Part shown: piece by piece, positions 4,407-55,384 of the stretch
Layout of the letters: each line of letters opens with the position of its first letter
How positions within the stretch are numbered: the stretch's first letter is position 1
Virus record (IMG/VR): IMGVR_UViG_3300046804_003469
Location: 62,001-126,000 of that record
Direction: 5' to 3' (one strand)
Source: a virus
DNA: 64,000 nucleotides
Program-made: the position numbers and the translations under genes
The notes under the pieces: model-generated
What the model saw: the letters and a program-made list of their open reading frames with translations, nothing else
What the model was told of the DNA's origin: nothing
Databases searched by the model: none

Positions 4407-4580
4407 ATGTCACAAACACAAGTAGAACTTTATAAAGATCTTACAATTACAACTCCTGATATTGTAGACTTATCAGTTACGACACCAAAAATCGCGGATC
4501 GTTCGGTTACAAGACAAAAATTAGCACTCGATGCTCAAAATTATCCGTTTACGACCCGTGGATTTAGTATGCCACTTTGA
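4407..4580 (+). CDS. Small 57-aa fibre-associated protein
   Basis: ATG at 4407 follows a good AAGGAGA ribosome site at 4394-4400, 20 bases after the giant fibre gene. The product contains two tandem 'SVT..KI/KLA' units (DLSVTTPKIADRSVTRQKLA), a short repeat common in phage tail-fibre stalks. It ends in an aromatic, basic tail (YPFTTRGFSMPL). It may be a short stalk piece or the remnant of a longer fibre. The function is unknown. The gene is convergent with a minus-strand gene whose stop lies two bases beyond its own stop. Confidence 0.7.
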   Translation: MSQTQVELYKDLTITTPDIVDLSVTTPKIADRSVTRQKLALDAQNYPFTTRGFSMPL

Positions 4581-4591
4581 AATTAAGTGGC
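4571..4591. terminator. Hairpin at convergent gene ends
   Basis: GCCACTT (4571-4577) and AAGTGGC (4585-4591) form a perfect 7-bp stem with a 7-base loop. The structure contains the stop codons of both converging genes (TGA at 4578, minus-strand TAA at 4583-4585). It probably acts as a bidirectional terminator. There is no long T run on either side, so this is inferred from position and symmetry. Confidence 0.5.
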
Positions 4592-5035
4592 AAGTTCTGT
4601 AATTGCTAATATATTATAAGCACCACATACGGCACTAAATGATTGATTTGGTGCCAACATTATTTCTGAAGGAAGTTCTGAAACTGAAGTGGTTGGTACT
4701 TGATGCCAACCCCAATATGTAGACCAATATGGATAATAAGCATAATAGTCATAATAATACCAATACCCATAATAAAAACCATAGTAATAGTAATAGTAGT
4801 AGTAAGTGTAAGGATAGTACCAATACCTATAAAACCAGCGATAACTACGATAGTATACTAAATTAGCATCATACGTTTTAACTACTTCATTGCCATAAAA
4901 TGTACTTACTTGCGTTATTCCTGCCCATGTTATTGAAAATGGGTTTTGCATGAAGTTGATTATAAGTCTTACATTTTGCCCTGTGGTATTTGTGTAAGAT
5001 GGATTGCTGATTCCGCTTAATACTTGTGATGCCAT
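4583..5035 (-). CDS. Minus-strand small adhesin-like protein with extreme Tyr-rich centre
   Basis: The product is 150 aa, starting at the ATG of MASQVLSG. An AAGGAGG ribosome site lies 12 bases upstream, inside the last codons of the neighbouring gene. Both ends are homologous to that neighbour: the N-terminus reads 'LSG.SNP.Y.N.TGQNVRL.INFM' and the C-terminus 'PSEIMLA...FSA..GAYNI'. Between them lies a block of about 50 residues containing roughly 28 tyrosines plus Trp, Phe and Gly, including a run of eight Tyr. The codons are TAC/TAT triplet repeats. This looks like conserved shoulders carrying a variable aromatic binding surface, perhaps a fibre-tip or capsid-decoration adhesin. No known family was recognised. 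It is one of only two minus-strand genes in the window. Confidence 0.75.
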   Translation of the reverse strand: MASQVLSGISNPSYTNTTGQNVRLIINFMQNPFSITWAGITQVSTFYGNEVVKTYDANLVYYRSYRWFYRYWYYPYTYYYYYYYYGFYYGYWYYYDYYAYYPYWSTYWGWHQVPTTSVSELPSEIMLAPNQSFSAVCGAYNILAITELAT

Positions 5036-5036
5036 A

Positions 5037-5594
5037 TCAAGTCCCATCCTCCTTAATTATTATAATATTGTATGCTCCAGATGTAGCACTAAAAAGATCA
5101 CCATTAGCGAGCATTATTTCAGTTGGAAAATTTCCACCACGAGAAATAGATAAAGGAATATAAAAAATATTTGATCCTTCTCCCCACCAAGAGTTAAATC
5201 CCCACCACCAGTGATACCATCCCCACCAATATCTTGAGTTACTTGTGATTGGATGAGAATCTGGGTTTCCAGTATTTGTGCTAGAAAAATGAGGAGGATG
5301 GTAAGCATTAGTATATGGAAAGTATGTCATAGTAACTCTACTTCCAGGCACTGCTTGACCACTATGTATTGTGTTTGGAGAAGCTTGATTATGCCCCTGG
5401 GGAATTGCGTATCTAAATTCACCATAGATATTTTGAATATCCTTTCCAATTGTTGTAGAAGCATTACTAATACTAACTCCAGACCAACTCATTCTCGTGA
5501 CATTCGACATATAATTAATAAGTAATCTTACATTCTGTCCAGTACTATTGACATAAGTAGGATTGCTTGCTCCACTTAATACTGTAGATGCCAT
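5037..5594 (-). CDS. Minus-strand small adhesin-like protein with Trp/Tyr/His-rich centre (paralogue)
   Basis: The product is 185 aa, starting at MASTVLSG (ATG at 5594-5592 on the minus strand). Its N-terminal ~35 and C-terminal ~35 residues match the downstream gene at 4583-5035. The middle is different: about 80 residues rich in Asn, His, Pro and Thr, then a Trp/Gly/Tyr-rich stretch (RYWWGWYHWWWGFNSWWG). Its TGA is two bases from the next start, so the two genes are translationally linked. Divergent transcription from the 1805-aa fibre gene starts in the 76-base gap. Function unknown. Position among fibre genes and the aromatic-rich insert suggest ligand or surface binding. Confidence 0.75.
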   Translation of the reverse strand: MASTVLSGASNPTYVNSTGQNVRLLINYMSNVTRMSWSGVSISNASTTIGKDIQNIYGEFRYAIPQGHNQASPNTIHSGQAVPGSRVTMTYFPYTNAYHPPHFSSTNTGNPDSHPITSNSRYWWGWYHWWWGFNSWWGEGSNIFYIPLSISRGGNFPTEIMLANGDLFSATSGAYNIIIIKEDGT

Positions 5595-5632
5595 ATTATT
5601 TTTAGCTAACAATTTATATTATTTAGTTTCTT

Positions 5633-5640
5633 TATAAATA
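5633..5640 (+). promoter_or_regulatory. T4-type late promoter TATAAATA
   Basis: This is an exact TATAAATA octamer 31 bases before the start of the 1805-aa fibre gene, in the divergent gap between + and - strand genes. T4-like phages transcribe late structural genes from this sequence with a phage sigma factor and sliding clamp. The minus strand of the same gap holds a near match (ATATAAAT) that could serve the two minus-strand genes. Confidence 0.65.
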
Positions 5641-5670
5641 ATATAAAAGCAGGGTGGAGAGTGAAACCCA

Positions 5671-8600
5671 ATGGCAATTAACAAGAATTTTGTAGTCAAG
5701 AACGGACTAGAAATTGCCACCAAACTGATCTTTGCAGATCCCGTAACTAATAAGGTAGGAATTGGAAATAGTGTTCCTTCTTATACACTCGATGTCACTG
5801 GAAACGCTAATATATCACAAGATATAAGAATAAGCGGCGCCGCAACATTTCCAACGGCAACAGGATCAAATTTATATTATAGTAATTCATTCTTCAACAA
5901 TTCATTTACAACAAGTGCATATGTAGTAAGTGGAGTTGTTACTACAATCACTGGTACTTCTTTAAATTATTCTGGAATAGGAACTGTTCAAACACAGTTA
6001 GATGTTGGAGTTGGAGGAGCAACACTTACTGCAAACGCAGTATCTTCAAATATTGGTATTGCGAATACAAATCCAACACAAAGATTTCAAATCAATACAG
6101 GAACAAATCTTGTTTCTGTAACTTCTATAGGAAATGTTGGTATTAATTCCGCAATTCCAACATCTAAGTTATATGTTGTAGGAGATCAATTTGTCACTGG
6201 TGTTATTACAGCATCGACATATAATGGACAAATTCAATCTGGTTTAGCAACAATATCTTCAGTTATTGGTACTTCTTTATATTTTGTTGGAGTATCAACG
6301 TTTACAAATAGTTCAACAGTTCTGATTGGTACAGGATCTTCAACAGGAACTGCTGGTCAAATTCTCCAAATTGCTGGAATTAATAGTAGCGTTTATATTG
6401 GTGGAAATCTTGGAATTGGTAACACAAATCCAGGAAGTAGATTTGATGTTATGTCAGTTGCTGCATCATCAGCAACTGGTGCAAGAATTGGTTTATTGAC
6501 ATCTTTTGTTGCTATTGGAACTGATATTGGAAGATCAATTGAGATTGGAGTTGGACAATCAACTCTCAATACTTATTTGGATTTCCATGGTGCTGATGAT
6601 ACTTACTCAGACTATGCAGCGAGATTGCTCCGTAATACTGGAGCAAATAGTAACTTTGATATCATCAATAGAGGAACTGGAAATATTAGATTAATTTCTA
6701 ATGAAGCAGGAAACATTGACGTTTATACAACTAATACTCAAAGAGCAAGAGTAGATAAAGACGGATATTTCATTGTAGGTGCTGCCCAAACATCAGGTAC
6801 TCAATTATTCCAAGTACAAGGTGGCGCTTATATTACTGGAACTGTTGGAATTGGTAGTTCTGCTCCTGGAGCAAAATTAAATGTTGTTCCATCTTCTGCA
6901 GCAATTGCTGGTCTATTCTCTGGAACTACAACAGCAGATCTTGTAAGACTCACCCAAACTGGTGCTGGTAACATTTTTGTTGCTCAGAATGCAGATTCAA
7001 GCACTACTCCATTCATAATCAACAACTCTGGTAATACTGGAATTGGAACTTCACTTCCTGGTGCAAAACTCCACGTATTACCAACTTCAACTGGAATTGC
7101 TGGATTGTTCTCTGGAAGCACTTCAGCAGACATGGTTCGTATTACCCAAGCAGGCTCGGGTAATGCTTTTGTCGTAGAAGATTCATCAAATCCAGATTCA
7201 AACCCATTTGTAATTGATACGAATGGTAATGTTGGTATTCTTTCCGCAACTCCAACAACCAATTTAGATGTTATTGGAACTTTAGGTGCAAGAATAGGTT
7301 TAACAACATCATATATTGCAATTGGAACAGATTTAGGTAGAAATATTGAAATTGGTCTTGGCAATTCTACTGGAGCAACATATATTGATTTCCATGGTGC
7401 TTATAATCTTTATCCAGACTATTCTGCAAGATTATTCAGTGATACTGGAGCATTAGGTAATTTTGATATTGTTAATCGTGGTGGAAGTATTCGTTTAATC
7501 GCTACTGATTCAACTGGAAATATTGATTTCTTAACAAATAATATTTTAAGAGGTAGAATTGATAAAGATGGAACAGTTTCTGTAGGAACTGCAACCTCAA
7601 CAGGAACTGCAAATCAAGTATTCCAAGTTGCTGGTGTAAGTAGCAATGCTTATATTGGTGGTCAGTTAGCAATTGGTAATACAACTGCTGGTTCTAGAGT
7701 TTATGTTGTTCCAACCAGTTCAGAAATTGCTGGTGTATTTTCTGGAACTACATCTGCAGATATGGTTCGCATTACTCAGATGGGATCTGGTAATGCATTT
7801 GTAATACAAGATTCTGCCGACCCTGATACTTCTCCTTTTGTAATTGATACGTTTGGTAGAGTAATTGTTGGAACAACTACTGGAATCACAATGCGTGGTT
7901 TCAATGGATGGATACAAGAACATGGAACCGATGATAATACTACTAGACATCAAATTGTTCGTTGGTCCAATGATGCACTTGGTCCTGTCCATTCATTCCT
8001 CAAATCAAAGGGAACCTCTGTAGGTTCAAATGTTATTGCTGCATATAATGATTCAACTGGTGAACTTCATTTCTTAGCAAATGATGGAACCGATTTTGTA
8101 AGAACTGGTATCATTAGTGCTGCTGTAGATGGAACAGCAGGACTTGGTTCAATGCCAGGTAGATTGGCATTTTATACAGTTTCTGCAGGTAGTTCAATTC
8201 CAATTGAAGCAATGCGTGTCAATTCGGGACAAGTTGTTCTGATTGGTACTGCAACTTCTACTGGAACTGCAAATCAAAAACTTCAAATTGGAACTGCAAC
8301 TACAACATTAGGTGCTTATATTTCTGGTTTTGTTGGAATTGCTTCAACCAATCCATCATCAAATTTAACAGTTGGTGGTAATGTTTTAATCACTGGAGTT
8401 ACAACATCATTAGTATTCAATGGTAATATTAATGCAACTGGTGTTTCTACATTCAGTGCCTCAGCAGGACCAGTATTAATTGGTACTGGCACATCGACAG
8501 GAACTGCAGGTCAAGTTCTTCAAGTTGCTGGTGTTAATAGTAGTGTATATGTCGGTGGAACAGTTGCTCTTGGCGCAACAATTGCTGGAGCAAGATTATA

Positions 8601-11088
8601 TGTTGTTCCTACTGGTAGTCAGATTGCTGGTGTATTCTCGGGAACCACTTCGGACGATATGGTTCGTATTACCCAAATGGGTACTGGTAATGCTCTTAGG
8701 ATAGAAGATGCCGCAAATCCTGATACATCTGCATTTGTAATTGATCAATCTGGTAATACTGGTATTGGTACAACAGCACCAAATACTGAATTACAAATTA
8801 ACTCAGTATCCCCAACAATTACACTTGTTGAAACTGATGCGACTACAGGAAACAGAACATGGATATTCGATGTTGATAACCAAGAATTATTATGGAAAGC
8901 ACAATCAGATACTTATGTATCTGGTACAAACTTCTTCAGATTAACAAGAAATTCTTCAAGTGTTGAATCATTTGAGGGTGTAAATGCAAGTTCTACTTGG
9001 TTTAAAGTTGATAACGCAAACCAGAAAGTTGGTATTGGTTCTACAACAATTTCAACTCAATTAGATGTTATTGGATCTGGTGGAGCAAGATTTGGTCTTA
9101 CAACATCTTTTGTTATAGTTGGTAGCGATTTAGGAAGAAATATTGAAATTGGTGTAGGACAATCTAATACCGCAACGTACTTAGATTTCCATGGTTCAGA
9201 TGATTCATTCCCAGATTTTGCAGCAAGATTAATTAACAATCCTAGTTCAAGTGGAACTTTTGATATTATTACCAGAGGAACTGGTAACTTTAGATTTATT
9301 ACTTCAGATGCTGCTGCAATTGATACATTCACAAATAATATTTTACGTGGAAGAATCACTTCAGATGGAACATATCTTGTAGGAACTGGAACCTCAACAG
9401 GAACTTCAAACCAAGTATTCCAAGTTGCTGGAGTCAGCAGTAATGCTTATATTGGTGGTCAAGTTGCAATTGGTTTAACTTTACCAGGAGCAAGATTGCA
9501 TGTAGTTCCAACTTCTGCTGAAATTGCTGGTTTATTCTCTGGTTCATCTTCATCAGATCTTGTAAGAATTACTCAAACTGGTTCTGGTAATGCATTAGTT
9601 GTTGAAGATGAAACAAATCCAGATACAACTCCGTTTGTAATTAATACCTCAGGTGATACTGGTATTGGTACAAATACCGTTGGTGCCAAACTTCATGTAT
9701 TACCAACCACAACAGGTATTGCTGGATTATTCTCAGGAACCACATCAAATGATATGGTTCGTATTACTCAACTTGGTTCTGGTAATGCATTTGTTGTTGA
9801 AGATTCTACAAATCCTGATTCAACACCTTTTGTAATTGATCAGAATGGTAGTGTTGGTATCAATACTCTTACACCATCACAATTATTCCAAGTTGGCGCT
9901 GGAACTTCAATAGTTGTTACGACTGGAATTGGTTCTATTGGTATTGGAACTGTAAATCCAGTAAGACCTTTATCAATCTTTAAAGATTCTTCAGCATCCA
10001 ACCTTTCACAAATTAATATTCAACCACTTACTTCATCAAATGCTTCTGGTGTTCAATTCATAAACGGTAGTGCATCAAACCTTAATATTGGATTACTGAA
10101 TACTAGTGGTGCAATTGCTGGATTTAGCAATGCTCCTGCTCTTGCTGGATTTATTGGATTAAGTGGATTAAATCCACTTCTGGTTGCCACAAATAATATT
10201 GAAAGATTAAGAATTGATCCACATGGAGTTATTTTAGCAGGTGTTGCTAACTCGACAGGAACTGCAAACCAGTTGGTACAGGTTGGTTCTTCAACTACTG
10301 TACGTGGTGCTTATGTTTCTGGTGATATTGGAGTTGGAGTCACTAATCCTGGTGCTAAGGTTCATATAGTTCCAAATGCATCTTCAATTGCTGGATTGTT
10401 CTCTGGAAGCACTTCAGCAGATATGGTTCGTATTACCCAATCGGGTACTGGAAATGCATTAGTTGTTGAAGATGCTGCAAATCCAGATTCAACACCATTT
10501 GTAGTTACAACTACTGGTTTTGTTGGAATTGGAACGACAAATCCAGTTGCACCTTTAACCGTTACTGATGGCAACGTATCAATTGCACCTCTTTATCCAA
10601 CTGATGTTGCTGCATTCTTAACCAATAACAATACTTATACCCAAGTTAATTTCACAAATACGAATAGTGGAGACAGTGCTTCTGGCGATTATGTTGTAAC
10701 AGCAGATAATGGCACTGATACAACCAACTATATTGATATGGGTATCAATAATAGTGGGTTTACAACAGGTCCTTCTTGGTCAATTAATGGTGCATTAGAT
10801 GGATATCTTTACACATCTGATGGAAACCTTTCGGTTGGTGCTGCATCTGCTAAGTATGTCTCATTCTTTACTGGTGGTTTATCATTACTCAATGAAAGAT
10901 TAAGAATTACTCCATCTGGATTAATTGGTGTTGCAACAACAAATCCATTATTCCAACTCGATGTTGCTGCAGGTGATATACGTGTTCAGAACACAAATAA
11001 GATGAGGTTTGGTGGAAATTCTTCTACAACTAATTTCTACATTCAATATAATTCTACATCTAACAGTTTAGATTTCGTAGCAGGATAA
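5671..11088 (+). CDS. Long repetitive tail fibre / virion structural protein, 1805 aa
   Basis: It begins MAINKNFVVKNGLEI..LIFADP, the start of a recurrent cyanophage structural protein type. It then consists of tandem modules: a hinge unit (GTSTGTANQ..QVAG..S.AYIGG), a 'GIG.TNPGAKLHV' unit, and a globular unit containing SGTTSADMVRITQ.GSGNA..VED..NPD..PFVID. The MVRIT unit occurs seven times. Residues near 1625-1735 are almost identical to part of the 638-aa protein at 15276-17192. There is no collar or S74 chaperone domain at the C-terminus. It is a probable trimeric beta-structured fibre shaft or adhesin. The ribosome site is weak (GGTGGAG at 5652-5658). A TATAAATA late promoter precedes it. 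Confidence 0.88.
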   Translation: MAINKNFVVKNGLEIATKLIFADPVTNKVGIGNSVPSYTLDVTGNANISQDIRISGAATFPTATGSNLYYSNSFFNNSFTTSAYVVSGVVTTITGTSLNYSGIGTVQTQLDVGVGGATLTANAVSSNIGIANTNPTQRFQINTGTNLVSVTSIGNVGINSAIPTSKLYVVGDQFVTGVITASTYNGQIQSGLATISSVIGTSLYFVGVSTFTNSSTVLIGTGSSTGTAGQILQIAGINSSVYIGGNLGIGNTNPGSRFDVMSVAASSATGARIGLLTSFVAIGTDIGRSIEIGVGQSTLNTYLDFHGADDTYSDYAARLLRNTGANSNFDIINRGTGNIRLISNEAGNIDVYTTNTQRARVDKDGYFIVGAAQTSGTQLFQVQGGAYITGTVGIGSSAPGAKLNVVPSSAAIAGLFSGTTTADLVRLTQTGAGNIFVAQNADSSTTPFIINNSGNTGIGTSLPGAKLHVLPTSTGIAGLFSGSTSADMVRITQAGSGNAFVVEDSSNPDSNPFVIDTNGNVGILSATPTTNLDVIGTLGARIGLTTSYIAIGTDLGRNIEIGLGNSTGATYIDFHGAYNLYPDYSARLFSDTGALGNFDIVNRGGSIRLIATDSTGNIDFLTNNILRGRIDKDGTVSVGTATSTGTANQVFQVAGVSSNAYIGGQLAIGNTTAGSRVYVVPTSSEIAGVFSGTTSADMVRITQMGSGNAFVIQDSADPDTSPFVIDTFGRVIVGTTTGITMRGFNGWIQEHGTDDNTTRHQIVRWSNDALGPVHSFLKSKGTSVGSNVIAAYNDSTGELHFLANDGTDFVRTGIISAAVDGTAGLGSMPGRLAFYTVSAGSSIPIEAMRVNSGQVVLIGTATSTGTANQKLQIGTATTTLGAYISGFVGIASTNPSSNLTVGGNVLITGVTTSLVFNGNINATGVSTFSASAGPVLIGTGTSTGTAGQVLQVAGVNSSVYVGGTVALGATIAGARLYVVPTGSQIAGVFSGTTSDDMVRITQMGTGNALRIEDAANPDTSAFVIDQSGNTGIGTTAPNTELQINSVSPTITLVETDATTGNRTWIFDVDNQELLWKAQSDTYVSGTNFFRLTRNSSSVESFEGVNASSTWFKVDNANQKVGIGSTTISTQLDVIGSGGARFGLTTSFVIVGSDLGRNIEIGVGQSNTATYLDFHGSDDSFPDFAARLINNPSSSGTFDIITRGTGNFRFITSDAAAIDTFTNNILRGRITSDGTYLVGTGTSTGTSNQVFQVAGVSSNAYIGGQVAIGLTLPGARLHVVPTSAEIAGLFSGSSSSDLVRITQTGSGNALVVEDETNPDTTPFVINTSGDTGIGTNTVGAKLHVLPTTTGIAGLFSGTTSNDMVRITQLGSGNAFVVEDSTNPDSTPFVIDQNGSVGINTLTPSQLFQVGAGTSIVVTTGIGSIGIGTVNPVRPLSIFKDSSASNLSQINIQPLTSSNASGVQFINGSASNLNIGLLNTSGAIAGFSNAPALAGFIGLSGLNPLLVATNNIERLRIDPHGVILAGVANSTGTANQLVQVGSSTTVRGAYVSGDIGVGVTNPGAKVHIVPNASSIAGLFSGSTSADMVRITQSGTGNALVVEDAANPDSTPFVVTTTGFVGIGTTNPVAPLTVTDGNVSIAPLYPTDVAAFLTNNNTYTQVNFTNTNSGDSASGDYVVTADNGTDTTNYIDMGINNSGFTTGPSWSINGALDGYLYTSDGNLSVGAASAKYVSFFTGGLSLLNERLRITPSGLIGVATTNPLFQLDVAAGDIRVQNTNKMRFGGNSSTTNFYIQYNSTSNSLDFVAG

Positions 11089-15276: not shown

Positions 15277-17192
15277 TGGCAAAACTTAGAGACGGCACAA
15301 GAGTTTACGGTTCTCTCACAGTTGATAATAACATAACAGCATCAAATGTTTCTGCTTCTGGATTAAATGCTTCTGGATTAACCAGTACTACATCATTGCT
15401 TGTTGGTGGTGGAACTTCATCAGGAACTACTGCAACATCTCTTCAAGTTGTTGGTGTTAATAGTAGTGTTTATGTTGGTGGAAATATTGGTATTGGAGTA
15501 ACAAATCCATCTACAAAACTTTCATTAATTGGTGATTCTGTTTTTAATGGAACTGCAATTTTCACTGGAAATAGAACAACAACTTTATTTCGCATTACTC
15601 AGACTGGTACTGGAAACGCATTAGTTGTTGAAGATGATACAAATCCAGATGCAACTCCATTTGTTGTAGGTGCTGCTGGATCTGTTGGTATTGGAATCAC
15701 AAATCCAGTTGCACCTTTAACCGTTACAGATGGTAATGTAGGAACTCCACCACAATATCCAAGTGATGTTGCTGCATTTTTAACCAATCAGAATACTTAT
15801 ACTCAAATTAACTTCACAAATACGAATAGTGGAGATGCTGCATCAGGTGATTATGTAGTAACTGCTGATGTTGGAACTGATACCACTGAATATATTGATA
15901 TGGGTATCAATAATAGTGGGTTTACAACAGGTGCTTCTTGGTCAATTAATGGTGCATTAGATGGATATCTTTATACTGCTACTGGTAATCTTTCAATTGG
16001 TGCTGCTTCTTCAAAATATCTTTCACTTTTTACTGGTGGACTTGCATTAGAAAATGAAAGATTGAGAATTGATCCTAATGGAGTAGTTGGAATTGGAGTT
16101 ACAGTATTCACTTCAGGAACTGCTCAAAAATTGCAAGTTGGTTCGACATCGGTATCTGCTAATGCCTATGTTTCTGGTCAAGTTGGTATTGGTTCAACAA
16201 TTCCATTTGCAAAACTTGCCGTTCATGATGATTCTGCTAGCCCTGTTGCTCAACCAGTTGTTTATATCCAAAGAACCGCAAGTATTGTCTCTGCTGGAAT
16301 AACAAACTCTGATTTAAGAATTAAAGGACATTCTGCAACTAACAAACTTTATATTGATGATCAGAACTCAAATCCATTAATGATTGTTACGGGTATTGGT
16401 TCTGTTGGTATTGGAACCACAAATCCACAATCAACAAAACTTTGGGTTGAAGGTAATACCAATATTGTTGGATTACTTACAGTAACTTCAAATGCTACAG
16501 TTACTGGAAACCTTACAGTTTCTGGTGGAACCATTACCGCAGGTAACGTTGCAACTAATTTATTGAGTGGTAATACAACAACTGGTGTTACCTTGATGGG
16601 ATCACAAACATCAGGAACATTTATATTAGGTGGAACTTCTGGAACTGGAACAATTACATTAGGTCGTGCTACGACTTCTCAGCAAACTGATATTCAAGCA
16701 GGTGCATCAGGCATTGGAACCACCAAAACTATTAACTTAGGAACTGGTGGTCTTTCTGGTTCAATTACTAGAATTAATATTGGACCTACTGCTGGTGTTG
16801 GAACAGTTACAATTAACTCTGGAACTAACTTAGGAATCAACTCCACAACTCCAACATCTTCTCTTTCTATTGTTGGTGATGCAGTTATTTCTGGTGTCGT
16901 TACAGCAACTGACTTTAATGCATTATCTGATGAAACATTAAAAACTAATGTACAATTAATTGAAAGTCCAATTCAAAAAGTAATGCAATTAAATGGTGTT
17001 ACATTTAACTGGAGAGATAATAATGAACCATCAGTCGGTGTCATTGCACAAGACGTTGAGAAAGTATTCCCAGAACTTGTTCATGGATTACAACCAAGAA
17101 CGGTTAGTTACAATGGATTAGTTGGTCTTTTAATTGAGTGTGTTAAAGAGCAACAAAAAGAAATCGAAGAATTAAAGAAGAAACTTAAGTAA
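15276..17192 (+). CDS. Tail fibre with C-terminal S74 intramolecular chaperone domain
   Basis: The product is 638 aa. The shaft repeats resemble the 1805-aa protein, including one RITQTGTGNALVVEDD unit and a segment almost identical to residues ~1625-1735 of that protein. The last ~90 residues are a peptidase S74 / endosialidase chaperone domain: LSDETLKTNV (catalytic Ser551 and Lys556 of the family's Ser-Lys dyad), FNWRDNN, VGVIAQDVEKVFPELV, YNGLVGLLIECVKEQQKEIEELKKKLK. These domains trimerise fibres through a coiled coil and then cut themselves off. The protein therefore probably matures as a trimeric fibre tip. TAATG overlaps join it to both neighbours. Confidence 0.9.
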   Translation: MAKLRDGTRVYGSLTVDNNITASNVSASGLNASGLTSTTSLLVGGGTSSGTTATSLQVVGVNSSVYVGGNIGIGVTNPSTKLSLIGDSVFNGTAIFTGNRTTTLFRITQTGTGNALVVEDDTNPDATPFVVGAAGSVGIGITNPVAPLTVTDGNVGTPPQYPSDVAAFLTNQNTYTQINFTNTNSGDAASGDYVVTADVGTDTTEYIDMGINNSGFTTGASWSINGALDGYLYTATGNLSIGAASSKYLSLFTGGLALENERLRIDPNGVVGIGVTVFTSGTAQKLQVGSTSVSANAYVSGQVGIGSTIPFAKLAVHDDSASPVAQPVVYIQRTASIVSAGITNSDLRIKGHSATNKLYIDDQNSNPLMIVTGIGSVGIGTTNPQSTKLWVEGNTNIVGLLTVTSNATVTGNLTVSGGTITAGNVATNLLSGNTTTGVTLMGSQTSGTFILGGTSGTGTITLGRATTSQQTDIQAGASGIGTTKTINLGTGGLSGSITRINIGPTAGVGTVTINSGTNLGINSTTPTSSLSIVGDAVISGVVTATDFNALSDETLKTNVQLIESPIQKVMQLNGVTFNWRDNNEPSVGVIAQDVEKVFPELVHGLQPRTVSYNGLVGLLIECVKEQQKEIEELKKKLK

Positions 17193-18484
17193 TGTCAATA
17201 TCTCAGAAATTTCCTGGAGAACCATCACTTTATTTAAATTTTGCAGGATCTAAAAAATTAGATCCTCGCATTACTTTCACTCGTAGCGAAACTGTTCCCA
17301 CTGCAACATTTGTAGATAAAAATAAATTGGTTGTTACTGCACAAGCAGATCAACCAAGATTTGATCATGACCCAACAACTGGTGTTTGTAATGGATTGTT
17401 GATTGAAGATACTAGGACTAATTTATTAAAATATAGTAATTCATTTAGCACAGGTGGTGCTGGAAATTGGACTTCAGTTGGTGCAACATGTGTTTTTACA
17501 CAAAATATAACAGGTCCAGATGGAATTGCCAATGGTTCTTGGACAATAGACGATCAATCAACTGGTGCTGATGCTGCTGGAGTAGAACAAGCACTTACAA
17601 TTACACCAAGTTCATCAACCAATTACTGCCTATCAATTTTTGCAAAACAAGGAACAGCAACATATTTTGATTTTTATTCATTCTTTACGGGAAATAGTGT
17701 AAAAGGTAGTTATTTTAGATATAATTTTTCTACAGACACAATTAATGTTAGTAGTTCAGATGGTGGTGGAATTACTCCAACAATTTTTGGAAAAATACAA
17801 TATCCTAATGGATGGTATAGATTATATTTTGTTGTCAATGATGCTAATAATGGATTAAACAACACATTACAATATAGAATTTATCCTGGTTCAAGAGATA
17901 CTGGAGTTACTGGAACGACTCTATTTTATGGAGCACAATGCGAGATTGGTCCTTTTCCAACTTCTTATATTCCCACAACAGCATCTTCAGTTCAAAGAAT
18001 TGGAGATTTAGCATATATTGATTTACCTTCAGATGGTTGGTATAACTATTCACAAGGTTCATTGGTGTTCCAACATACTGCAGTTGGTTTTTCAACATTA
18101 TCCACTGCTGGAAATCCAGTAGTTGGTTTTGCTCAAACTGATGGATCTTTTGCCAATTCTGCTCAATATACTTTTGATAAAACTACTGGTAATGCTCAAT
18201 ATCGTGTAAGAATTGGTAATGTAGATCAAGCAGCTATAGATTCTAATGATTCATCATCGGCATCAAAAGTTGGATTTTCTTATGCAACAAACTCATTTTC
18301 TCTTGCGAGAAATGGAAGTTTAGTAGGAACTGATAGTTCAGGATCAATACCACAATCAATTGGAACTCTTCTTTTTGGTGCAAATGTTAAAGATCCAAAT
18401 TCTAATTTAAATGCTTGTATAAGTAGTTTAACATATTATCCAGTTGATCTTTCAGATTCTCAGTTGGTAGCACTTACACGATAA
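17192..18484 (+). CDS. Fibre-associated adhesin-like protein, copy 1 of 3
   Basis: The product is 430 aa and the first of three tandem paralogues. The shared N-terminus is 'PSLYLNFAGSKKLDPRITFTRS', then PRFDHDPTTGVCNGLLIEDTRTNL. The shared middle (YGAQCEIGPFPTSYIPTTASSVQRIGD) matches the WGAQLE..PTSYIPT signature of carbohydrate-binding modules on many phage spikes. The C-terminus ends 'SLTYYPVDLSDSQLVALT', a LamG-like closing strand. I infer a sugar-binding structural protein. It starts within the stop of the S74 fibre (TAATG) and its own stop overlaps the next start. Confidence 0.82.
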   Translation: MSISQKFPGEPSLYLNFAGSKKLDPRITFTRSETVPTATFVDKNKLVVTAQADQPRFDHDPTTGVCNGLLIEDTRTNLLKYSNSFSTGGAGNWTSVGATCVFTQNITGPDGIANGSWTIDDQSTGADAAGVEQALTITPSSSTNYCLSIFAKQGTATYFDFYSFFTGNSVKGSYFRYNFSTDTINVSSSDGGGITPTIFGKIQYPNGWYRLYFVVNDANNGLNNTLQYRIYPGSRDTGVTGTTLFYGAQCEIGPFPTSYIPTTASSVQRIGDLAYIDLPSDGWYNYSQGSLVFQHTAVGFSTLSTAGNPVVGFAQTDGSFANSAQYTFDKTTGNAQYRVRIGNVDQAAIDSNDSSSASKVGFSYATNSFSLARNGSLVGTDSSGSIPQSIGTLLFGANVKDPNSNLNACISSLTYYPVDLSDSQLVALTR

Positions 18485-19782
18485 TGCCAATATCTCATCT
18501 CTATCCAAATTCAAATCCATCAATAAGATTAAACTTTGCAAAAGCAAAGAAATTAGATCCTCGGATTACTTTCTCACGAAATTCTACAGGTACGGTATTA
18601 AACTCTCAAGGATATGTTGAGACTGTAGGAATTGATGCCCCAAGATTTGATCATTCATATGATAGAGTCAGCAATTCTGTGGTTTCTCTTGGTCTTTTGA
18701 TTGAAGATGCAAAAGTAAATTTATTTACTTTTAGTGATCAATTTTCAAATGCTGCTTGGACAAAAACAAATACGACAATTGGAGCAAATTCTTTAATTTC
18801 TCCTCCAACTGGAATTGGATCAGTTCTTTCAATTATTGATAATACAACAAACGCTGCTCATACCATTTCACGATCAGTATCTTCTACACTTACAAATACA
18901 TATTCTTTCAGTTGTTTTGCTAGATCAGGTATAAACAGTACTGGATATGCGATTCAATTAACATCAACAATATCTGGACTTTCTCAAAAATTAGTTTTTG
19001 ATTTAGATAATGGAGTTGCAATTTCATCATATACTTCAGGAATATATACATCTTTCATTCAACCATATCCTAATGGATGGTATAGAGTTGGTTATGCTGC
19101 AACAGCAACTTCAACCACAGCATCATCATTTACAATTGGAATTGCATTAAAATCTGGTGCTGGAATTACAACAAACTATGTTGGATCTGGAGGATCAATT
19201 TGTGTATGGGGTGCTCAATTAGAGACCTCTCCAATACCATCATCTTATATACAATCTGATGCATCTTCTGGTATTCGTTCAGGTGATATTGCATACATGG
19301 ATCTTGGACAATCATCTTGGTTTAATTCCACACAAGGATCGTTAGTATTTGAACATAGACCTGTTGGATTTAGTACAACAACACTTGCTGGATATCCTGC
19401 GATTGGTTTTGCTAATACTGCGGGAAGTTCTACATATGCGTTTCAATACTTCTTTGATAGATCTGCCAATAAAACATCACAATATTTGGCAAGAAATAAT
19501 GGATTGGATATCTCCACAATTAATTATTTTGCAACAACTTATTCAGAATTCCCAGCAGCAAAAGTTGGATTTGCATATACTTCCAACTTATTCACACTTG
19601 CAAGAAATGGATCAGTTGTTGGAACTGGTGCTGGAACAACAGTTCCTTCAGTGGCAACTTTATTGATTGGAAATAATGCAAAAGTTGACTCTCAAACCAT
19701 AAATTCTACTATATCATATATCCATTATTATCCTCAAGCATTGACAAGCACTCAACTTCAAAACTTAACGAAGAGAGCATAA
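18484..19782 (+). CDS. Fibre-associated adhesin-like protein, copy 2 of 3
   Basis: The product is 432 aa, paralogous to both neighbours: IRLNFAKAKKLDPRITFSRNSTG, PRFDHSYDRV, GLLIEDAKVNL, then 'VWGAQLETSPIPSSYIQSD' and a closing 'ISYIHYYPQALTSTQLQNLTKRA'. The usual DHDPTTGVCNG motif is altered to a longer DHSYDRVSNSVVSLG, so this copy has diverged most near the first conserved block. It probably binds glycans through the same module. It is coupled to the flanking genes by one-base TAATG overlaps, implying near-stoichiometric synthesis of the three proteins. Confidence 0.82.
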   Translation: MPISHLYPNSNPSIRLNFAKAKKLDPRITFSRNSTGTVLNSQGYVETVGIDAPRFDHSYDRVSNSVVSLGLLIEDAKVNLFTFSDQFSNAAWTKTNTTIGANSLISPPTGIGSVLSIIDNTTNAAHTISRSVSSTLTNTYSFSCFARSGINSTGYAIQLTSTISGLSQKLVFDLDNGVAISSYTSGIYTSFIQPYPNGWYRVGYAATATSTTASSFTIGIALKSGAGITTNYVGSGGSICVWGAQLETSPIPSSYIQSDASSGIRSGDIAYMDLGQSSWFNSTQGSLVFEHRPVGFSTTTLAGYPAIGFANTAGSSTYAFQYFFDRSANKTSQYLARNNGLDISTINYFATTYSEFPAAKVGFAYTSNLFTLARNGSVVGTGAGTTVPSVATLLIGNNAKVDSQTINSTISYIHYYPQALTSTQLQNLTKRA

Positions 19783-20996
19783 TGATAAACACTAGTATTC
19801 TTCCATATATTGATGTTACATCTAAACCATCATTGGTTTTAGATTTTGCTAACTCTAAAAGATTAGATCCTCGGATCACTTTTACAAGATCGAGTGGCGG
19901 AACTTGTGTTGGTCCAAATGGATTGATTACTCTTGTTTCTGCAGATCAACCAAGATTTGATCATGATCCAACAACTGGTGTTTGTAATGGATTGTTGATT
20001 GAGGAGAGTAGGACTAATTTACAACTACAATCGGGAAATATAGATAATACAATTTCTCCTTGGAATAGTAACACTGCATTTAATACAACTAAAATTGGAC
20101 CAACAACTGCTCCCGATGGCACAAATACTGCTATCATTTATGCTGGGAATGGTGCAGGAAATAATGAGTTTGTATGCCAATCAAATAACCTATCTTCAAA
20201 TACAACATATACTGCTTCAATATGGGCAAGAATAGTAAGTGGAACATTACCAACAAGTGGACAAATAATTTCTGCAGAGTATAATAATGGAGTTGCAACA
20301 ACTAGAGCAAATGTTTCTTATTCTAATAATTTAACGACTAGTTGGAAGAGATTTTCAGTCACATTTACTAATGTAAATGCTCTCAATGGTGCATTTTTAT
20401 TTTTTATTGCTGATCAAAATAATACAGCACAAATAGCAGTGTGGGGAGCACAATTAGAAGTAGGATCATTCCCAACCTCTTACATTCCCACAACATCAGC
20501 AACAGTCACAAGATCTCAAGATAATGCAAGTATAGTAGGACCTAATTTTTCAAGTTGGTATAATCCAAATGAATGGACACTTTTTGCTGATATGTCAACT
20601 CCAAGTGCAAACTTAATTGCCGCAGCATCACAAGCACAATATGTTTCAATAGATGATGGAACTATGAACAATACTTATGCAATTAGGTGTGTAACAGATC
20701 CTTCAACACCTTATATCGATGGTTATGCACAATTTAATAATAATCCAATTGCAGATTATACTGGAAGTGATGGATCATCTTTCCCATCAAGAGTTAAAGC
20801 AGCATTTGTAGCAAAAAATAGTGATTCGGCATTTTGTTATAATGGAAATACCGTAGAAACAGATACTGCATTTACATTGGCATCAACTGTAGATAGAATG
20901 AGAATTGGTGTTAATCCTAAAGCAGGCACTATTGCAAAAATACTTTATTATCCATCTCGTTTGAGTAATACTCAAATCAAACAATTAACCACATAA
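19782..20996 (+). CDS. Fibre-associated adhesin-like protein, copy 3 of 3
   Basis: The product is 404 aa. It keeps both signatures of the trio: LVLDFANSKRLDPRITFTRSSGG with RFDHDPTTGVCNGLLIEESRTNL near the N-terminus, and WGAQLEVGSFPTSYIPTTSATVTRSQD in the middle. The C-terminus (KILYYPSRLSNTQIKQLTT) is LamG-like. The domain between (residues ~265-380) differs from the other two copies, suggesting exchange of binding domains on a common frame. It is coupled by TAATG to copy 2. Confidence 0.82.
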   Translation: MINTSILPYIDVTSKPSLVLDFANSKRLDPRITFTRSSGGTCVGPNGLITLVSADQPRFDHDPTTGVCNGLLIEESRTNLQLQSGNIDNTISPWNSNTAFNTTKIGPTTAPDGTNTAIIYAGNGAGNNEFVCQSNNLSSNTTYTASIWARIVSGTLPTSGQIISAEYNNGVATTRANVSYSNNLTTSWKRFSVTFTNVNALNGAFLFFIADQNNTAQIAVWGAQLEVGSFPTSYIPTTSATVTRSQDNASIVGPNFSSWYNPNEWTLFADMSTPSANLIAAASQAQYVSIDDGTMNNTYAIRCVTDPSTPYIDGYAQFNNNPIADYTGSDGSSFPSRVKAAFVAKNSDSAFCYNGNTVETDTAFTLASTVDRMRIGVNPKAGTIAKILYYPSRLSNTQIKQLTT

Positions 20997-49478: not shown

Positions 49479-49573
49479 GATCTTATGAGTCCTGTTCTAG
49501 ATCTTATGAGTCCTGTTCTAGATCTTATGAGTCCTGTTCTAGATCTTATGAGTCCTGTTCTAGATCTTATGAG
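49479..49573. repeat. 21-bp tandem repeat, four perfect copies plus a partial fifth
   Basis: Units start at 49479, 49500, 49521 and 49542 and are identical. Each begins GATCTTATGAGTCC and ends TGTTCTA. A partial fifth begins at 49563. The junctions create TCTAGA, and each unit contains GATCTTATGA, half of the 16-bp palindrome at 50111. There are no spacers between units, so this is not a CRISPR array. Confidence 0.9.
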
Positions 49574-52547: not shown

Positions 52548-52620
52548 TCAATCAACTAGATTACACATCTAGATTCACACAAAACTCAACTAGATTCACA
52601 CAAAACTCAACTAGATTCAC
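52525..52620. repeat. ACTAGATT repeat cluster
   Basis: Six CTAGATT copies lie within about 95 bases. The sequence also contains the direct repeat CACAAAACTCAACTAGATT twice, at 19-base spacing. It forms the untranslated leader of the 45-aa gene. The same words occur at 49.7-49.9 kb and 53.7 kb. Confidence 0.75.
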
Positions 52621-52625
52621 ACATC

Positions 52626-53734: not shown

Positions 53735-53806
53735 CTAGATTCAATCGAGAATCTAAAAACCCAACTAGATTCAATCGAGAATCTAAAAACCCAACTAGAT
53801 TCAATC
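53735..53806. repeat. 30-bp tandem repeat, two copies plus a partial third
   Basis: Units start at 53735 and 53765 and are identical; a 12-base partial third starts at 53795. Each begins CTAGATTCAATCGAGAATC. Also contains an inverted pair GATTC/GAATC. It is the leader of the 58-aa gene. An open frame through it (giving repeated LDSIENLKTQ) is a by-product of the 30-bp period. Confidence 0.88.
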
Positions 53807-55255: not shown

Positions 55256-55384
55256 TATAAGACTCTAAAAAAATTCCCAGGGGATTCATAAGATCTCAAA
55301 GGGTTTTATAAGACTCTAAAAAAATTCCCAGGGGATTCATAAGATCTCAAAGGGTTTTATAAGACTCTAAAAAAATTTCCAGGG
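55256..55384. repeat. 51-bp tandem repeat, two copies plus about half a third
   Basis: Units begin at 55256, 55307 and 55358 with TATAAGACTCTAAAAAAATT. The first two are identical. Each contains TCATAAGATCT, the half-site of the palindrome at 50111. It lies in the 385-base non-coding region before a perfect promoter. It could be a regulatory array or origin-related. Confidence 0.9.

What the first reader, a model, noticed from the sequence alone, without database searches (positions are those of the whole stretch)
4583..5594. Minus-strand pair of paralogues with conserved shoulders and hypervariable Tyr/Trp-rich centres
These are the only two minus-strand genes in 64 kb, inserted between giant fibre genes. 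Both ends are homologous (LSG.SNP.Y; INxM; EIMLA...FSA..GAYNI) but the middles differ completely. One has about 28 Tyr in ~50 residues coded by TAC/TAT triplet runs; the other has Trp-Gly-Tyr-His repeats. Aromatic-rich variable patches between stable shoulders are typical of binding loops (antibody CDRs, DGR targets, synthetic Tyr/Ser binders). Triplet repeats can expand and contract by slippage, giving a possible diversification mechanism. Function is unknown.
Basis: partly seen in the sequence, partly recalled or inferred. Interest (0 to 1): 0.72.

Follow-up and report, generated by a model that had tools for sequence, protein, structure and literature searches.

The report
Cyanophage fibre-tip proteins with swappable loops
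Two small reversed genes in a marine cyanobacterial virus belong to an undescribed protein family that always sits next to a tail fibre ending in one short, conserved peptide, which suggests that these proteins are plug-on fibre tips whose exposed loop is replaced from virus to virus.

Summary
The two genes run 4583-5035 (minus; first ATG at 5047) and 5037-5594 (minus). They share their ends and not their middles: one has 28 Tyr in 50 residues, the other 8 Trp in 30. They have no Pfam or PHROG match. I found 50-70 relatives in marine viral contigs, and the record carrying the window has psbA/psbD-type genes, so it is a cyanophage.

The shoulders form one predicted all-beta domain (pLDDT 91-98). 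The middle is a low-confidence insertion loop whose sequence is at shuffled-level identity between relatives with about 88% identical shoulders. The aromatic richness is peculiar to this window.

The main new result is genetic linkage. Family genes lie beside fibres, or beside 54-73-residue mini-proteins, that end in a conserved C-terminal peptide: PFTTRGFSxPI where the genes converge, FxSxxWxIPL where they share a strand. A blind scan of 2.9 million viral contigs for the first peptide gave 42 true C-termini, and all 42 abut a family gene. Fibre bodies differ while the tag stays.

Best explanation (0.6): a tag-docked fibre tip whose variable loop contacts the host. It works like T2/S16 gp38 but is not a gp38. 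Slippage- or DGR-driven diversification is not supported. Docking and receptor binding are inferred.

The parts
4407..4580 (+). 57-aa mini-protein MSQTQVELYKDLTITT...NYPFTTRGFSMPL: short fibre-like stalk ending in the C-terminal tag
   Evidence: Sequence; 54-73-residue proteins ending in the same kind of tag occupy the same place in L011, L039, L040, L107, L108, L112 and L163
4545..4577 (+). C-terminal tag PFTTRGFSMPL, the proposed docking peptide
   Evidence: Conserved at peptide level with synonymous codon variation; 42 of 42 true C-terminal occurrences in IMG/VR abut a family gene
4583..5035 (-). Gene A, tip-family protein with Tyr-rich centre (ORF open from ATG 5047, likely start 5035)
   Evidence: tandem partner and orthologue of the 78-80-aa loop-less second genes of L005, L007, L008, L010, L016, L032
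4676..4900 (-). Gene A variable centre (about 75 aa, 48% Tyr+Trp), inserted where the orthologous small paralogues have 3-12 residues
   Evidence: block pLDDT 40-58
5037..5594 (-). Gene B, tip-family protein with Trp-rich centre
5124..5444 (-). Gene B variable centre; its outer ~25 residues on each side still match L005/L008, the Trp-rich core does not
   Evidence: (block pLDDT mostly 44-60)
5595..5670 (.). Divergent intergenic region with a late-promoter element TATAAATA (5633-5640, plus, facing the next fibre) and weaker elements facing genes B/A (TATAAAGA 5636-5629, TATAAATT 5618-5611, minus)
   Evidence: most relatives have the palindrome TATTTATAAATA (fibre strand 22/22, tip-gene strand 19/22); late-promoter consensus from PMC2984593
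5671..11088 (+). Divergent large fibre (MAINKNFVVKNGLE...), constant neighbour of the family in the convergent class
   Evidence: (phrog_18345 tail fiber protein)

Best explanation
Genes A and B encode small fibre-tip proteins. The two shoulders fold together into one small beta domain that docks onto a conserved C-terminal peptide (here PFTTRGFSMPL on the 57-aa stalk protein; elsewhere on fibres of over 1,000 residues). The hypervariable centre projects as a loop and makes the host-specific contact. The tag/socket interface stays constant, so the fibre body and the loop can each be replaced without loss of assembly. Both genes are late genes, read in most relatives from a promoter palindrome shared with the next fibre. 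Shown here: the family, its shoulder/loop architecture (predicted), the variability, the tag linkage, the late-promoter sequence. Inferred: physical docking, presence in the virion, receptor binding.
For: (1) Tag linkage: a blind degenerate-DNA scan of 2.9 M viral contigs gave 43 stretches, 42 with the tag at a true C-terminus, and all 42 have a convergent family gene next door (the one truncated locus, L117, completed). (2) Independent arrangement: in Salacisavirus-like viruses the family genes lie on the same strand, usually about 28 nt downstream of quite different fibres, and 19 distinct fibre ends read F.[ST]..W.[IM]P-like, such as PFESKWHIPF, LFTTKYWNIPLS, AFQSNWRIPL. (3) The tag is conserved as peptide: its codons vary synonymously. 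(4) The tag is kept while the fibre body changes, including 54-73-aa mini-proteins; family shoulders covary with the tag after controlling for the fibre body (partial r 0.30, permutation p 0.004, 29 loci). (5) Shoulders predicted at pLDDT 91-98, centre mostly at or below 60. (6) Centres at shuffled-level identity while shoulders are 87-89% identical (L007/L008), yet under purifying selection between close relatives. (7) Flanking genes match tail fibre families and the promoter is of late type (PMC2984593).
Against: No fold match to any known adhesin: Foldseek against PDB and BFVD gave nothing at E<=0.001, only weak cupin/jelly-roll-like resemblance. No annotated cultured phage carries the family at the sensitivity used, so there is no proteomic or genetic support. 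Linkage could partly reflect inheritance of the locus as a block. In six relatives (L005, L007, L008, L010, L016, L032) the second protein has practically no loop, so the loop cannot be essential to every member's role.
Confidence: 0.6

Rival explanations
1. Fibre assembly chaperone or transient cap: the protein binds the C-terminal tag to trimerise or shield the fibre and then leaves; the variable loop matches the chaperone to its fibre.
For: Chaperone genes also follow their fibre genes; Alteromonas phage chaperones are proposed to act as transient caps (PMC10579305) and T4 gp38 is released after assembly (PMC12892980). The tag linkage fits a chaperone as well as a tip.
Against: A chaperone's variable part should track its fibre, but here the fibre tail is nearly constant while the centre is replaced wholesale. 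Loop-less 78-aa members exist. No chaperone family in Pfam or PHROGs matches.
Confidence: 0.2
2. Virion decoration or inter-fibre clamp in which the centre is a loosely constrained spacer and the aromatic blocks are low-complexity drift.
For: Centres are mostly Gly/Ser/Thr/Asn-rich and predicted with low confidence; the Tyr run is low-complexity.
Against: Between close relatives the centre is under purifying selection (dN/dS about 0.1-0.4), unlike free drift.
Confidence: 0.12
3. Actively diversified binding protein (codon-repeat slippage or a diversity-generating retroelement).
For: Tyr codons form short imperfect repeats in gene A.
Against: No reverse transcriptase in the 215-kb record; no tandem repeats in gene B or most relatives; near-identical contigs show no centre-only change; purifying selection on centres.
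Confidence: 0.05

Closest known systems
T2/S16/PP01-type gp38 tail fibre tip adhesin
   Same: Small separate gene product at the fibre tip; constant part that attaches to the fibre, hypervariable segments that contact the receptor (PMC12892980)
   Different: No glycine-rich/PGII motifs, no sequence match; one continuous loop inside a beta domain rather than several segments between Gly-rich motifs; often a reversed gene; linkage to a short C-terminal tag found on unrelated fibre bodies; genes often in tandem. Tip location is inferred here, shown there
Phage fibre chaperones and transient caps (Alteromonas A5/V22 chaperones)
   Same: Encoded next to the fibre and expected to act at its tip (PMC10579305)
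   Different: The Alteromonas chaperones resemble intramolecular-chaperone domains with helical cores; here the predicted domain is all-beta with a hypervariable loop and no profile match
DGR variable proteins (Mtd type)
   Same: Variable surface on a stable scaffold in phage fibres
   Different: No reverse transcriptase in the record, variation in length as well as sequence, no short-term variation seen
Host recognition cluster of cyano- and pelagimyophages
   Different: That description is regional; the passages I searched do not name this protein family or the tag

Membership tests
gp38-type tip adhesin | Gene adjacent to a fibre gene | tested here: met
gp38-type tip adhesin | Constant parts flanking hypervariable segments | tested here: met
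gp38-type tip adhesin | Sequence or profile match to known tip/adhesin families | tested here: not met
   Pfam and PHROGs: no convincing family for window proteins or relatives
gp38-type tip adhesin | Glycine-rich motifs forming a PGII sandwich | tested here: not met
   Conserved parts of the sequences lack glycine-rich motifs; PDB sequence and fold searches give no such match
gp38-type tip adhesin | Bound at the fibre tip of mature virions and binds a receptor | not testable with these tools
   Needs virions, binding assays or a structure
DGR variable protein | Reverse transcriptase in the same genome | tested here: not met
   PF00078 absent from the 215-kb record, controls positive; completeness of the record is unknown
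DGR variable protein | Template repeat with adenine-specific differences | not tested
   No RT found, so not pursued
Fibre assembly chaperone | Match to a known chaperone family | tested here: not met
Fibre assembly chaperone | Needed for fibre folding and released afterwards | not testable with these tools
   Biochemistry needed
T4-type late gene | TATAAATA/NATAAATA promoter upstream | tested here: met
   Family as a whole: family strand 19/22, fibre strand 22/22. In the window itself the family-strand copy is degenerate (TATAAAGA/TATAAATT)

The most novel reading that the evidence does not exclude
A tag-and-socket fibre system: one short C-terminal peptide, carried by unrelated fibres and by 54-73-residue stalks, accepts any member of a family of swappable tips. 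Tandem arrays of two or three tip genes behind a single tag (window, L170, L177, L179, L182) would let one virion population carry alternative or mixed tips on the same fibre.
Probability: 0.3. Interest if true: 0.78.

Novelty: new variant of a known kind. Interest (0 to 1): 0.6.

Why it matters
Host-recognition proteins of T4-like cyanophages are largely unassigned; a review of their genomes notes structural proteins of unknown function that may account for 'missing' tail fibre proteins (PMC2984593). A conserved peptide that marks fibre ends, and a family that goes with it, gives a simple sequence rule for finding candidate host-recognition tips in uncultured marine phages, and a testable two-part interaction.

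Tried and rejected
DGR: no RT. Slippage as a general mechanism: TRF on all family genes finds only scattered short repeats. Aromatic block as a family trait: rejected. Known domain in the middle: none in Pfam, PHROGs or PDB sequences. Fold identification: only weak cupin/jelly-roll-like Foldseek hits, not used. Bacterial genomes: one scan found no relative. Relatives in cultured phages: only two single-cell marine virus records found. S-WAM1 fibre shares fibre-body sequence and has no family gene annotated downstream; I did not read its C-terminus in the right frame, so it was not used as a control. Single-protein pattern scan for gene A found nothing.

Full report
What is there. The window lies in a 215,027-base virus record with two photosystem reaction-centre genes (PF00124), so it is a cyanophage; the region codes for tail fibres and baseplate proteins. 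Two minus-strand genes, A (4583..5035, ORF open to 5047) and B (5037..5594), lie between a 57-aa plus-strand gene (4407..4580) and a large divergent fibre gene (5671..11088).

The family. Profile-based scans of IMG/VR brought 48, 57 and 22 loci, partly overlapping, and two single-cell marine virus records. The first 45 distinct members share MAxQVLSG..NxSYTNNTGQNVRxxINY at the start and PTExMLAxGQTFSAxxGAYNIVVIPE at the end, with 3 to about 114 residues between the segments I used as shoulders. Between L007 and L008 the shoulders are 89% and 87% identical while the centres are 27% identical against 26% after shuffling. Gene B's homology to L005 and L008 runs about 25 residues further into the centre on each side, so its truly variable core is the Trp-rich part. 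Gene A corresponds to the second, loop-less gene (78-80 aa) of the pairs in L005, L007, L008, L010, L016 and L032, so its Tyr-rich block is most simply an insertion gained in this lineage. No other measured member has more than 10% Tyr+Trp in the centre.

Selection and short-term change. For close relatives the centre evolves mostly by synonymous change (L025/L027 dN 0.11, dS 1.19; L004/L049 dN 0.10, dS 0.36), so it is functional. Groups of near-identical contigs show no centre-only change, and the record has no reverse transcriptase. The pattern is wholesale replacement over longer times, not a visible hypermutation process. The tools may leave out records very near the window, so this was not tested for the aromatic blocks themselves.

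Structure. AlphaFold2 with a 41-sequence alignment gives the shoulders 91-98 pLDDT as one all-beta domain (B: strands 3-8, 13-15, 22-37, 40-50, 159-162, 167-171, 175-181) and leaves the centre mostly below 60. The centre is thus an insertion between two strands. Foldseek finds no confident relative.

The tag. In the convergent class the family gene's stop codon faces, a few bases away, the stop of a fibre that ends in P[FY]TT[RK]GF[SNG]xPI/L. Fibre length varies and the last residues stay; in L011, L039, L040, L107, L108, L112, L163 and the window a short protein carries the same kind of ending. Codons vary synonymously. I then scanned all viral contigs blindly for the degenerate DNA of this tag: 43 stretches, of which one (L113) is a chance match with an internal stop and 42 are true C-termini. 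Forty-one show a convergent family gene within the fetched DNA; for the last (L117, contig 63936-65411, tag at about 65300) the family gene lies at 65335-65673 on the other strand. So the association is 42 of 42. Many of these contigs were already known from the family searches; the scan itself used no family information beyond the peptide.

An independent arrangement. In Salacisavirus-like viruses (L054, L168-L189) the family genes follow the fibre on the same strand, usually about 28 nt downstream and sometimes two or three in tandem. The fibres differ greatly (54 to 978 aa, collagen-like or not), but 19 distinct ends share a related tag F.[ST]..W.[IM]P. Among 183 other C-termini of ORFs of at least 150 aa from the same loci, a loose version of the motif hits six; one is the L168 fibre that does adjoin a family gene, and the other five lack the W.[IM]P core. 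The motif was defined after seeing the tags, so this control is descriptive. In the convergent class, distances between family shoulders correlate with tag distances after controlling for fibre body (partial r 0.30, permutation p 0.004, 29 loci); this is modest and phylogeny is not fully removed.

Expression. The 62-76 bases between the family gene and the divergent fibre carry, in most relatives, the perfect palindrome TATTTATAAATA, which is two overlapping late promoters (TATAAATA) pointing both ways: fibre strand 22/22, family strand 19/22. NATAAATA is the reported late promoter of cyanophage S-PM2 (PMC2984593). This explains how a lone reversed gene can stay inside a one-directional late cluster. 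In the window the family-strand copy is degenerate.

Interpretation. Constant tag plus constant shoulders, variable loop, fibre neighbourhood and late promoter together fit a plug-on fibre tip. It works like gp38 of T2/S16/PP01, a tip protein with a fibre-binding constant part and hypervariable receptor-binding loops (PMC12892980), but it is not a member: no sequence or fold match and no glycine-rich motifs. The chief rival is a chaperone or cap (PMC10579305). Docking, virion location and receptor binding are inferred.

Limits. No cultured, annotated phage in the collection carries the family at the sensitivity used, and one scan of bacterial genomes found none. No complex could be predicted with the tools at hand.

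Noticed in passing
L119 / G002:C1:20416-21210: Two family domains fused head to tail in a single 288-aa open frame, next to a fibre ending PYTTKGFSFPI.
   Followed up: partly
L170 3568-4753, L177 3135-4393, L179 3986-4797, L182 3518-4408: Two or three different tip-family genes in tandem behind a single tagged fibre (AFQSSWRIPL or AFQSNWRIPL), as if several tips share one docking tag.
   Followed up: partly
L172 254-1210, L181 4381-5331, L187 3228-4349: A second recurrent fibre C-terminus, YYFSGSWRVA, on fibres near but not immediately upstream of tip-family genes; it may be the tag of another tip family.
   Followed up: no
window 49479-49573, 52569-52623, 53735-53806, 55256-55384: Perfect or near-perfect tandem repeats (21 bp x4.5, 21 bp x2.6, 30 bp x2.4, 51 bp x2.5), some built on CTAGATTC-like units, in the small-gene region.
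   Followed up: no
window 17192-20996: Three consecutive paralogous tail proteins (404-432 aa), all best matched by phrog_5939.
   Followed up: no
G000:C1:30482-32660: Two photosystem II reaction-centre type genes (PF00124) about 30 kb upstream of the window, marking the record as a cyanophage.
   Followed up: partly
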